DNA from: Panopea generosa
Lineage: Eukaryota > Mollusca > Bivalvia > Adapedonta > Hiatellidae
NCBI GenBank assembly: GCA_029582155.1
Contig: CM055896.1
Location: 10,099,463-10,163,462, forward strand
Reading direction: 5' to 3'
DNA: 64,000 nucleotides
Shown here: piece by piece, positions 721-32,645 of the stretch
Layout of the letters: every line of letters begins with the position of its first letter
How positions within the stretch are numbered: position 1 is the stretch's first letter
Notes under the pieces: generated by a model
What the model saw: the letters and a program-made list of their open reading frames with translations, nothing else
What the model was told of the DNA's origin: nothing
Databases searched by the model: none
Program-made: the position numbers and the translations under genes

Positions 721-1043
721 AATACAGACACTTAAACTATGTCATTGTTGCAAATTGACGATCATTTTACTTCTAATGAAAAATTAAAACCAATATTTAA
801 GCGAAATCCCTTAAAGTAACATAATTTATATTATACGAATACATGTTTAAATTATATACATGTATGTGCAACACACCAGGTTTGTCTCGTAAAATGTATG
901 GATGATGTGTAGTTGTTTTTGTTGTTGTTTTTCTTTAAAATATCTAATAACTTTAAAATTACTTGATTGGCGTTCTCGTTAAAATATGCACAACATATCA
1001 CAACTTTGAATAATTAATAAATATAAAAAGTTTATCTGCATAG

Positions 1044-1500
1044 TCATGTATTTGTTGTAGTTCGACATGATTAGTGATGATATAATACGGTTCGTTTACA
1101 TATTCATGTATTTGTTGTAGGTCAGCATGACTAGTGGTGATATAATACGGTTCGTTTACATATTCATGTATTTGTTGTAGGTCAACATGACTAGTGATGA
1201 TATAATACGGTTCGTTTACATATTCATGTATTTGTTGTATGTCAACATGACTAGTGATGATATAATACGGTTCGTTTACATATGCATGTATTTGTTGTAG
1301 GTCAACATGACTAGTGGTGATATAATACGGTTCGTTTACATATTCATGTATTTGTTGTAGGTCAACATGACTAGTGATGATATAATACGGTTCATTTACA
1401 TATTCATGTATTTGTTGTAGGTCAACATGACTAGTGATGATATATTACGGGTCGTTTACATATCAATGTATTTATTGTAGGTCAGCATGATCAGTGGTAA
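1044..1500 (+). repeat. 60-bp minisatellite carrying a repeated 3' splice-site junction
   Basis: Eight units of exactly 60 bp start at 1044, 1104, 1164, 1224, 1284, 1344, 1404 and 1464. Each contains a TTTGTTGTAG-like acceptor followed by GTCAACATGACTAGTG. The last unit runs straight into the receptor exon, where TTTATTGTAG is followed by GTCAGCATGATCAGTGG. The array is therefore a tandem duplication of the intron-exon junction. Seven acceptors keep the AG (ending at 1060, 1120, 1180, 1300, 1360, 1420 and 1480); the fourth, ending at 1240, reads TAT. In the exon's reading frame each upstream unit has a TAG stop at its acceptor, so using an upstream acceptor would truncate the protein. Confidence 0.95.
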
Positions 1501-2089
1501 AAAAGGCATCACGAAGTTTGCATTCCAGGAGAGTTCAGAATGGCAAGTCGTCAACACCAGCTGGAAGGTAGAGGAACGTTTCGGAGAATCGCCGATAATA
1601 TTTACTTTGGAATTGAAGCGAAACCCCCTCTTTGTTGAAATAACCATTCTGTTTCCAATTGTAATGCTTTCTATACTGAACCTATTTGTATTTGTATTGC
1701 CATGTGATGGTGGGGAAAAGGGGAGTTATGCCATAACAGTTTTCCTGTCATTTGTTGTATTTTTCACCCTATTGTCTACAACATTTCCTGCCAAATCTGA
1801 CTCCATTTCAATACTTTCCATTTACGTGATAATTCAAACGGTACAGAGTACTGCCATTACACTCATAGCACTTCTGTTGATACGCTGCAGTTCATTCAGA
1901 GCTGACGTTCCCGCCCCATCATGTTTCGCATGCCTTACGAAAGTGATAAAGTGCTCGCCGTGTAGAAAACACAAGCACCGTATTTATTCGTGGAATAGAG
2001 TTGTAAATGCACTCGACTTATTATTTTTCATTCTGTTTTCAGTAACATTCATAGCGTCATCTGTAGTGTGTTATAGATTAGTCATGTAA
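1481..2089 (+). CDS. Nicotinic acetylcholine receptor-like Cys-loop channel subunit, terminal exon (partial)
   Basis: This is the 3' exon of a pentameric ligand-gated ion channel subunit of the plasma membrane. Residues are numbered from the Met at 1487. The end of the ligand-binding domain is at 1-45, with SSEWQVVNTS matching the conserved GEW strand. M1 is about 47-72 (NPLFVEITILFP...LPCDGGE). M2 is about 78-100, preceded by GEK whose Glu is the -1' residue typical of cation-selective channels. M3 is about 107-133. A short cytoplasmic loop is rich in Cys, Lys and Arg (134-170). M4 is about 172-196, and the protein ends four residues later. The vicinal Cys pair of alpha subunits is absent from loop C (RFGESPIIF), suggesting a non-alpha or divergent subunit. 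The exon is taken to begin at 1481 after TTTATTGTAG; the Met at 1487 is internal. The 5' exons with signal peptide and Cys-loop were not found in 1-1480 and probably lie outside the window. The frame is intact to TAA, so it looks functional, but a single-exon remnant cannot be excluded. Confidence 0.88.
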   Translation, partial: VSMISGKKGITKFAFQESSEWQVVNTSWKVEERFGESPIIFTLELKRNPLFVEITILFPIVMLSILNLFVFVLPCDGGEKGSYAITVFLSFVVFFTLLSTTFPAKSDSISILSIYVIIQTVQSTAITLIALLLIRCSSFRADVPAPSCFACLTKVIKCSPCRKHKHRIYSWNRVVNALDLLFFILFSVTFIASSVVCYRLVM

Positions 2090-2240: not shown

Positions 2241-2322
2241 AATAAACAATATATTTTATGTGATATTATGTGTTGTAAATATGTTATTATGAAGATGTAT
2301 TTATGTACAAGTCTGAAATAAA
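2241..2322 (+). promoter_or_regulatory. Candidate polyadenylation signals of the receptor gene
   Basis: Two canonical AATAAA hexamers lie 152 and 228 bp after the receptor stop codon, at 2241-2246 and 2317-2322. The second is followed by a T/GT-rich stretch (TGTTCTGTTCTGTTCG), as expected for a downstream element. In AT-rich DNA such hexamers are common, so the assignment rests on position. Confidence 0.5.
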
Positions 2323-30605: not shown

Positions 30606-30611
30606 AAGTGA

Positions 30612-32645
30612 ACCTAGCTATCGTGTAGCTAGCTGTAGTGTAGCTAACTGTAGTGTAGCTAGCTGTAGTGTAGCTAGCTATAGTGTAGCTAGCTGTAGTG
30701 TAGCTAGCTGTAGTGTAGCTAGCTATAGTGTACCTAGCTGTAATGTACCTGGCTGTAGTGTACCTAGCTGTACTGTACTTAGCTGAAGTATACCTAATTG
30801 TAGTATACCTGGCTGTAGTGAAGCTAGCTGTAGTGTACTTAGCTGTAATATACCTAGCTGAAGTGAAGCTAGCTTTAGTGAAGCTAGCTATAGGGTATTT
30901 AACTGTCGTATACCGAGCTGTAGTGAAGCTAGCTGTAGTGTACCTAGCTGTAAGGTACCTAACTGTAGTACACCTAGCTGTAGTGAACCTAACTGTACTG
31001 TACCTAGCTGTACTGTACCTAGCTGTAGTGTACCTAACTGTAGTATACCTAGCTGTAGTGTACCTAGCTGTAGTGTACCTAGCTGTTGGGTACCTAACTG
31101 TAGTACACCTAGCTGTAGTGAACCTAGCTGTACTATACCTAGATGTAGTGTATTCAGCTGTAGTATACCTAGCTGTAGTGTATCCAGCTGTAGTATACCT
31201 AGCTGTAGTGTATCAAGCTGTAGTGTACATAGCTATATTGTACCAAACAGTAGTGTAACTAGTTGTAATATACCTAGATGAAGTGAAGCTAACTGTAGCT
31301 GTAGTACACATAGCTGCAGTATACCTAGATGTAGTGTATCCAGTTGTAGTGTACCTAGCTGTAGTGAAGCCAACTGTAGTGCACGTATCTATAGTGAACC
31401 TTACTGTAGTGTATCTAGATGTAGTGTACCTAGCTGTAGTGACCCTAACTGTAGTGTATCCAGCTGTAGTGTACCTAACTGTAGTGTACATAGCTGTAGT
31501 GTACATAACTGTATTGAAGCTAGCTATAGTTTATCCAGCTGTAGTGTACCTAGCTGGCTGTAGTGTACTTAGCGGTAGTAACCATAACTGTGCTGTACTG
31601 AAGCAAGCTATAGTGTACCCAGCTGTAGTGTACCAAGATGTAGTATGTATAGCTGCAGTGTATCTAGGAGTAGTGAAGGTAGCTGTAGTATACCTAGCTA
31701 TAATTGAGCTAGCTGTAGTGTACTCAGCTGTAGTGTACCTAGCTGCAGTGTACCTACATGTAATGTACCTAGTTGTAGTGTATTTAGCTGTAGTGATTCT
31801 AACTGTAGTGAACCTAGCTGCAGTGTACCTAGCTGTAGTGAAGCTAGCTGTACTGTACCCAGCTGTACTAAACCTAGCAATAGTATACCCAGCTGTAGTG
31901 AAGCTAACGATAGTATACCCAGTTGTAGTGTACCTAGCTGTTGTGCACATAGCTTTAATATAGCTAGCTGTAGTGTACCTATCTGCAGTGCACCTAGCTG
32001 ACGTGTACCAAACTGTAATGGAGCTAGCAATTGCCTAACTGTATAGTAGTGTACCTATCTGTAGTGTTCCTAGCTATAGTGTTCTTAGCTGTAATATGCC
32101 TAGCTATAGTGTTCCTAGCTGTATTATGCCTAGCTATAGTGTTCTTAGCTGTAATATGCCTAGCTATAGTGTTCCTAGATGTAATATGTCTAGCTATAGT
32201 GTTCTGAGCTGTAATATGTCTAGCTATAGTGTTCCTAGCTGTAGTTTTCCTTGCTGTAGTGTACCGATATGTTATATGCCTAACTGTATAGTAGTGTACC
32301 TATCTGTAGTGTTGTGTTCCTAGCTATAGTGTCCCTAGATGTAATATGCCTAGCTATAGTGTTCTTAGCTGTAATATGTCTAGCTATAGTGTTCTTAGCT
32401 GTAATATGCCTAGCTATAGTGTTCCTAGCTGTAATATACCTAGCTATAGTGTTCTTAGCTGTAATATGTCTAGCTATAGTGTTCCTAGCTGTAATATGTC
32501 TAGCTATAGTGTTCCTTGCTGTAGTGTACCTAGCAATAGTGTACCTAGCTGTATTGTACATTGCTGTAGTGTACCTAACTGAAGTATGCCTAGCTGTAGT
32601 GTACTTAGCGGTGGCGTACCCAGCTGTACTGTACATAGCTGTTAT
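30612..32645. repeat. 15-bp minisatellite (TAGCTGTAGTGTACC), about 2 kb
   Basis: Roughly 135 diverged units of 15 bp. The first eight or so read TAGCTGTAGTGTAGC. From about 32080 to 32530 a 30-bp two-unit period dominates (TAGCTATAGTGTTCC plus TAGCTGTAATATGCC), interrupted near 32240-32330 by a more mixed stretch. Because 15 is divisible by three and some phases lack stops, long open frames with pentapeptide repeats (VYLAV, YTTAR) appear on both strands; these are not taken as genes. Confidence 0.97.

What the first reader, a model, noticed from the sequence alone, without database searches (positions are those of the whole stretch)
1044..1500. Minisatellite that multiplies a 3' splice site in front of a channel exon
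The 60-bp unit includes the acceptor (TTTGTTGTAG) and the first 20 bp of the receptor exon, so the real acceptor at 1480 is preceded by seven near-copies, six of which keep the AG. Units are exactly 60 bp, so frame is preserved, yet each upstream unit ends in an in-frame TAG. Use of an upstream acceptor would give transcripts that stop before M1. The array could act as a splicing decoy that sets dosage, or be neutral. The single unit with TAT instead of TAG at 1240 may be drift.
Basis: partly seen in the sequence, partly recalled or inferred. Interest (0 to 1): 0.7.

Follow-up and report, generated by a model that had tools for sequence, protein, structure and literature searches.

The report
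Splice-site minisatellite in receptor gene cluster
A 60-base repeat has copied the start of a channel exon, splice signal included, several times into the intron in front of it; the same repeat sits before sister genes in very different copy numbers, so it looks like an unstable passenger of a kind known from lancelets rather than a tuned switch.

Summary
At 1039-1490 a 60-bp unit (7.5 copies) carries about 38 bp of intron end plus about 22 bp of exon start. The authentic acceptor is 1480/1481; six of seven upstream copies keep AG. The exon (1481-2089) is the transmembrane exon of a nicotinic-type Cys-loop receptor. Two genes received five units and the first 21-37 nt of the exon from a neighbour, most simply by conversion, leaving their old, intact acceptor inside the intron. 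Acceptor AGs are not kept better than other bases (82% against a mean of 90%), which argues against a conserved decoy. This matches amphioxus "mirages", minisatellites of intron-exon boundaries reported not to disturb splicing. Verdict: a real passenger minisatellite, ordinary in mechanism; a new member of a known kind, with unusual size and spread.

The parts
1039..1490 (+). minisatellite, 60-bp unit x 7.5, spanning the 3' end of an intron and the first bases of the exon
   Evidence: TRF; decomposition
1061..1420 (+). six complete intronic units; five of the six end in AG, all six keep the branch-point-like TTTAC
1181..1240 (+). unit ending TAT instead of TAG; identical to three units of the paralogous array g5
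1421..1480 (+). last unit with the authentic acceptor (TATTTATTGTAG); an edge unit, 1 difference from the last unit of g5 and 5 to 8 from the other complete units of g5
1481..2089 (+). exon of a nicotinic-type Cys-loop receptor, probably the last one: end of the extracellular domain, M1-M4, stop at 2087-2089
   Evidence: translation; PF02932 E=4.1e-09; nicotinic receptor chains of the PDB, best E=8.5e-17
2317..2322 (+). AATAAA, possible poly(A) signal (inferred)
   Evidence: sequence

Best explanation
It is a boundary-spanning minisatellite (a 'mirage' in the amphioxus literature). A 60-bp stretch across the intron 3' end and exon start was duplicated in an ancestor of this receptor cluster (inferred), then grew and shrank by unequal exchange or slippage: edge units stayed put while the number of inner units changed (shown: g5 and g11 share edge units but hold 12 and 7 upstream copies). 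Because each unit shares its first bases with the real exon, units also moved between neighbouring genes, most simply by gene conversion (the mosaic is shown in g4 and g8; the process is inferred). In splicing (inferred, untested) the last acceptor, next to the real exon, makes the receptor; upstream copies are cryptic acceptors that are mostly ignored or occasionally used, giving a transcript that usually meets a stop within one unit and lacks M1-M4. The array is then a neutral to mildly harmful passenger, not a tuned dosage device.
For: Array real. Same unit in front of the same exon in paralogs on C3 9.82-10.10 Mb; the 113 listed DNA matches all lie there (a lower bound). Upstream acceptor-like copies per gene: g1 0, g2 0 (one more, degenerate, by eye), g3 122, g4 6, g5 12, g6 1, g7 30, g8 6, g9 29, g10 1, g11 (window) 7; 171 of 214 keep AG (recounted). 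In the 182 intronic units of exact 60-bp spacing the acceptor AG is intact in 82.4% against a mean of 90.2% over 59 dinucleotides, 8 of which are lower; in 120 distinct units 79.2% against 89.0%, again 8 lower. Edges of g5 and g11: 0 differences in the three left-most 60-bp stretches, 1 in the last unit. Nearest-neighbour units lie in the same array 61.6% of the time against 38.1% in 500 label shuffles, maximum 46.6% (g4 and g8 pooled). Four A-type exons (g3, g5, g9, g11) have pairwise dN/dS 0.26-0.42, so coding constraint coexists with arrays. Minisatellites are dense here: 14 merged arrays, 9,339 of 64,000 bases. Published amphioxus cases are reported not to disturb regular splicing (passages of PMC3087553, and PMC3902484).
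Against: No RNA evidence. The upstream acceptors look as good as the real one by eye, so a simple first-AG rule would predict frequent misuse. Damaged exons: g3 (122 copies) has a stop codon and g7 (30) a frameshift, but so are g1 (0, deletion) and g4 (6, frameshift) damaged, while g9 (29) is open; too few for a test. The lower AG conservation could reflect mild selection against decoys instead of neutrality. Units are not more alike within than between arrays in g3 (6.07 against 5.59 differences) and about equal in g7 and g4/g8. In potato a single tandem duplication across such a boundary did change splicing, by creating a new intron (abstract and passages of PMC4974935).
Confidence: 0.75

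Rival explanations
1. Splicing decoy that sets dosage: upstream acceptors compete with the real one, and more units mean less receptor and more truncated transcript.
For: The consensus unit holds a branch-point-like TTTAC 22 nt before the AG, a T-rich tract and TAG; TTTAC is intact in 151 of 182 intronic units and in all 6 of the window. Of 182 intronic units 150 have an in-frame stop within the unit, 127 of them first at codon 20, the unit's end.
Against: AGs are not better kept than other positions. Copy number is 0 to 122 across paralogs, with open exons at 0, 1, 1, 6, 7, 12 and 29. Because the exon is probably the last one, a stop there would not be marked for decay by a downstream exon junction (inference from established NMD models).
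Confidence: 0.12
2. Mildly deleterious array on the way to gene death: long arrays cause mis-splicing, lower selection on the exon, and damaged copies follow.
For: The two broken A-type genes hold the two longest arrays (122 and 30 upstream copies); the three open ones hold 29, 12 and 7.
Against: Five genes only; 30 and 29 are practically the same; the other broken copies, g1 and g4, have 0 and 6.
Confidence: 0.08
3. Ladder of recursive splice sites, or a new mini-exon and intron: each AG|GT joint could serve as acceptor and then as donor, or a unit could be used as a small extra exon.
For: Each AG-bearing joint reads TAG|GT in the consensus, and removing whole units from such a joint gives the same mRNA (sequence). 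Boundary duplications have created introns elsewhere (PMC4974935 passages; model in PMC3087553 passages).
Against: The regenerated donor GAG|GTCAAC looks weak by the recalled consensus (no G at +5), compared with the real donor GAG|gtgag of the same intron in paralogs. The GT is the valine codon also found at the C1 and C5 exons, where the unit search gave no match. The best other donor-like spot by eye (CTA|GTGATG) would add 13 nt and break the frame.
Confidence: 0.04

Closest known systems
Amphioxus 'mirages' (Adh3, globins BflGb6 and BflGb9; TnC and PGBD5 are named beside them)
   Same: Minisatellite-like tandem duplications of an intron-exon boundary; many but not all repeats keep AG/GT; copy number unstable; cluster edges escape homogenisation (PMC3087553 passages; PMC3902484 passage). 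BflGb6 has the same arrangement, 3' intron end plus 5' exon part, with 6 and 3 units in two haplotypes.
   Different: No RT-PCR here.
Potato RdRp intron gain by tandem duplication across an intron-exon boundary
   Different: One duplication that made a new intron; here arrays that, as far as sequence tells, only lengthen an existing intron.
Internal tandem repeats of human segmentally duplicated genes
   Same: Minisatellite expansion in recent paralogs; at exon-intron boundaries it may form new introns or activate cryptic splice sites (PMC2812944 passages).
   Different: On average 30-bp units repeated 4 times; here an acceptor is multiplied in an existing intron.
Human interferon-induced gene 6-16 minisatellite with multiple splice donors (recalled, nothing read)
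   Same: A minisatellite that multiplies a splice site.
   Different: Donor sites, not acceptors; from memory only.
Massive nAChR expansion of molluscs
   Same: Large nicotinic-type family with tandem arrays and many intronless genes (PMC6896357 passages); here 150 matches scored out of 271 candidates.
   Different: The passages shown do not speak of boundary minisatellites.

Membership tests
mirage (boundary-spanning minisatellite) | tandem unit spans an intron-exon boundary | tested here: met
mirage (boundary-spanning minisatellite) | many but not all repeats keep the splice signal | tested here: met
   171 of 214 upstream copies keep AG
mirage (boundary-spanning minisatellite) | length instability | tested here: met
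   0 to 122 copies among 11 paralogs; alleles of one gene were not available
mirage (boundary-spanning minisatellite) | concerted evolution with edge units excluded | tested here: met
   g5 and g11 share edges while inner number differs; nearest neighbours in the same array 0.616 against 0.381. Against it: within-array means are not lower in g3 and about equal in g7 and g4/g8
mirage (boundary-spanning minisatellite) | regular splicing not disturbed | not testable with these tools
   no RNA reads
mirage (boundary-spanning minisatellite) | reported from cephalochordates | tested here: inconclusive
   host unnamed; 1.47 Gb in 39 contigs and 150 scored nAChR-like matches suggest a mollusc, not shown
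nicotinic-type Cys-loop receptor | transmembrane domain PF02932 | tested here: met
   37.5 bits against cut-off 28.1; PDB nicotinic chains
nicotinic-type Cys-loop receptor | ligand-binding domain with Cys-loop in the same gene | tested here: inconclusive
   one ligand-domain exon upstream of the window, and the Cys-loop exon in paralogs; the corresponding stretch of this gene reads N
conserved splicing decoy | decoy AG kept above background | tested here: not met
   82.4% against mean 90.2%
recursive splice site | strong donor directly after the AG | tested here: not met
   GTCAAC, judged by eye against a recalled consensus; no scoring model was run

The most novel reading that the evidence does not exclude
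The boundary minisatellite is an engine that relocates splice acceptors and rewrites exon starts in a gene cluster: by sharing 22 bp with the real exon it converts neighbours, pushes their working acceptor into the intron and installs a new one (g4, g8), and its copy number then grades receptor output by acceptor competition.
Probability: 0.12. Interest if true: 0.65.

Novelty: new member of a known kind. Interest (0 to 1): 0.42.

Why it matters
In the passages I read, mirages are described from cephalochordates and proposed as a route to new introns. This cluster offers a graded natural series (0 to 122 acceptor copies in front of closely related exons) and two genes in which an intact old acceptor was left 299 bp upstream of a new one. 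That makes the question of how the splicing machinery picks one of many similar 3' sites directly testable with ordinary RNA-seq.

Tried and rejected
Hairpin masking: consensus decoys could place the AG in the loop of GUUG-UAGGU-CAAC, and 10 of 11 real acceptors have A at -7 where 137 of 171 AG-bearing decoys have G. Rejected as a mechanism: stem columns 54 and 55 are among the more variable ones, real acceptors fold from 0 to -8.1 kcal/mol against a decoy mean of -3.4, and a C1 homologue has the same GTTG before its acceptor. The difference at -7 stays, most simply because edge units are not homogenised.

Pseudogene reading of the window gene: upstream exons seemed missing, but that stretch reads N, so nothing can be concluded. 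Damaged terminal exons are g1, g3, g4 and g7; the window copy is open.

A claim that the boundary array is uniquely unstable was dropped. In the same blocks the 47-bp arrays (41.8, 41.8, 31.8 copies upstream of g3, g5, g7) and 35-bp arrays (3.6, 3.6, 4.6) changed little, but a 79-bp array upstream of g2, g4 and g6 has 7.0, 29.5 and 7.0 copies.

Literature: searches found boundary duplications in amphioxus, human and potato papers. I opened passages of seven listed papers. The one mollusc paper opened for this (abalone TSSK1-like) has a 27-bp intron minisatellite and, in the passages shown, no boundary unit. Searches returned no paper. The library holds open-licence papers only, so 'not reported in molluscs' is not shown. 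The original amphioxus Adh paper is not held.

Full report
WHAT IS THERE. The 60-bp array is real: TRF reports 1039-1490, 7.5 copies, 94% matches, no indels. The unit is GTCAACATGACTAGTGATGATATAATACGGTTCGTTTACATATTCATGTATTTGTTGTAG (consensus of 182 intronic units of exact 60-bp spacing from seven arrays; units of other spacing, mostly 31 or 59 bp, and the seven last units were left out). Its first ~22 bases resemble the start of the exon and its last ~38 the end of the intron, with a branch-point-like TTTAC (motif recalled) 22 nt before the end, intact in 151 of 182 units. Seven copies precede the authentic acceptor at 1480, six with AG.

THE EXON. 1481-2089 encodes 202 residues: the end of the extracellular domain and M1-M4 of a Cys-loop receptor (PF02932, E=4.1e-09; best PDB chains are nicotinic alpha-7). 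Its start is confirmed by three homologous exons on C1 and C5, which begin at the same codon, and by the phase-0 donor GAG|gtgag after the Cys-loop exon in seven of the eight paralogs read there (the damaged g1 lacks it). The preceding exon of the window gene itself cannot be read, since that stretch is N.

THE CLUSTER. In the host genome (1.47 Gb, 39 contigs) the unit search matched only a 0.28-Mb cluster on C3 (113 matches, a lower bound). A protein search with the exon scored 150 of 271 candidates. I read the stretch before 11 cluster exons. Upstream acceptor-like copies number 0, 0, 122, 6, 12, 1, 30, 6, 29, 1 and 7 for g1 to g11, the window being g11; 171 of 214 keep AG. In g2 one more, degenerate copy is visible by eye. 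The g9 array is split by about 920 bp of other sequence. Genes fall into an A type (g3, g5, g7, g9, g11), a B type (g2, g6, g10) and hybrids g4 and g8; g1 is a more distant, damaged copy.

HISTORY. g1 has no upstream copy. B genes have one degenerate upstream copy without AG (TAT in g6 and g10; the same letters in g2). A genes have the arrays. In g4 and g8 the intron and the old exon start are B-like up to GTCAACATGTCGAGTG; then A-type units follow, then an A-like exon start. Diagnostic exon sites are A-like at positions 11, 12, 19 and 21 and B-like from 38 on, except position 50 in g8. The intron is 299 bp longer than in g2, g6 and g10 (636 against 337 in the measure), five units less one base. 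A conversion event seeded by the shared exon start is the simplest reading; g4 and g8 may stem from one event followed by block duplication. g5 and g11 share edges with 0-1 differences but hold 12 and 7 upstream copies, so growth or loss was internal. The TAT unit of the window is identical to three units of g5.

BACKGROUND. Minisatellites are common here: 14 merged arrays in 9,339 of 64,000 window bases, and 19 in 24,397 of 200,000 cluster bases. Other arrays of the same duplicated blocks are partly stable (47-bp: 41.8, 41.8, 31.8; 35-bp: 3.6, 3.6, 4.6) and partly not (79-bp: 7.0, 29.5, 7.0), so the swing of the 60-bp array (about 117, 12.5, 29.5 upstream of g3, g5, g7) is large but not alone.

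FUNCTION. If decoys were useful their AGs should be kept. They are not: 82.4% intact against a mean of 90.2% over dinucleotides, with 8 of 59 lower. The AG at unit positions 13-14, no acceptor here, is 99.5% intact. The difference is not extreme enough to claim selection against them. An in-frame stop falls within the unit in 150 of 182 units (127 first at codon 20, 23 earlier; 32 have none). The product would lack M1-M4. The exon seems terminal (stop at 2087-2089, AATAAA at 2317-2322), so exon-junction-dependent decay would not be expected; this is inference. Pairwise dN/dS among g3, g5, g9 and g11 is 0.26-0.42 (NG86; g7 not included, one codon left out of all). Among g2, g6, g8 and g10 it is 0.68-3.37 on few changes, so recent constraint there is unproven. 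Damaged exons: g1, g3, g4, g7.

WHAT IS KNOWN. Amphioxus 'mirages' are the same kind of object. In passages of PMC3087553 the authors report minisatellite-like duplications of 3' intron end plus 5' exon part in BflGb6, 6 and 3 units in two haplotypes, AG/GT in many but not all repeats, and data suggesting no interference with regular splicing. PMC3902484 (passage) adds 60- and 108-bp repeats over splice sites in lancelet PGBD5. A potato gene gained an intron by one such duplication (PMC4974935 abstract and passages), so splicing effects are possible. The present case extends the kind to another animal, probably a mollusc (inference from the receptor expansion, compare PMC6896357 passages), to longer arrays, and to spread among paralogs.

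VERDICT. Observation confirmed, decoy function unsupported, passenger minisatellite most likely (0.75). The cluster is a good natural test of 3' splice-site choice. On checking, the odds of the gene-death rival were lowered from 0.10 to 0.08 and those of the recursive or mini-exon rival raised from 0.03 to 0.04, the latter because of the potato case.

Noticed in passing
window 1-64000: Fourteen merged minisatellite arrays (period 10-150, 3 or more copies, score 100 or more) cover 9,339 of 64,000 bases, including a 15-bp unit repeated about 134 times at 30607-32642.
   Followed up: partly
window 998-1444, minus strand: The array lies in one open frame of 148 codons on the minus strand with a 20-residue repeat; probably a by-product of the 60-bp period.
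   Followed up: no
L030, within the g9 array: About 920 bp of other sequence split the g9 array; its last part (714-889) has 77-79% identical copies elsewhere in the cluster, perhaps a mobile element.
   Followed up: partly
L009-L028 (C3 9.80-10.00 Mb): Other minisatellites recur with the duplicated blocks: a 47-bp array (41.8, 41.8, 31.8 copies upstream of g3, g5, g7) and a 79-bp array (7.0, 29.5, 7.0 upstream of g2, g4, g6).
   Followed up: partly
host genome G000: 150 scored matches to the receptor exon out of 271 candidates, many in open frames of 400 residues or more, i.e. possibly intronless genes.
   Followed up: no
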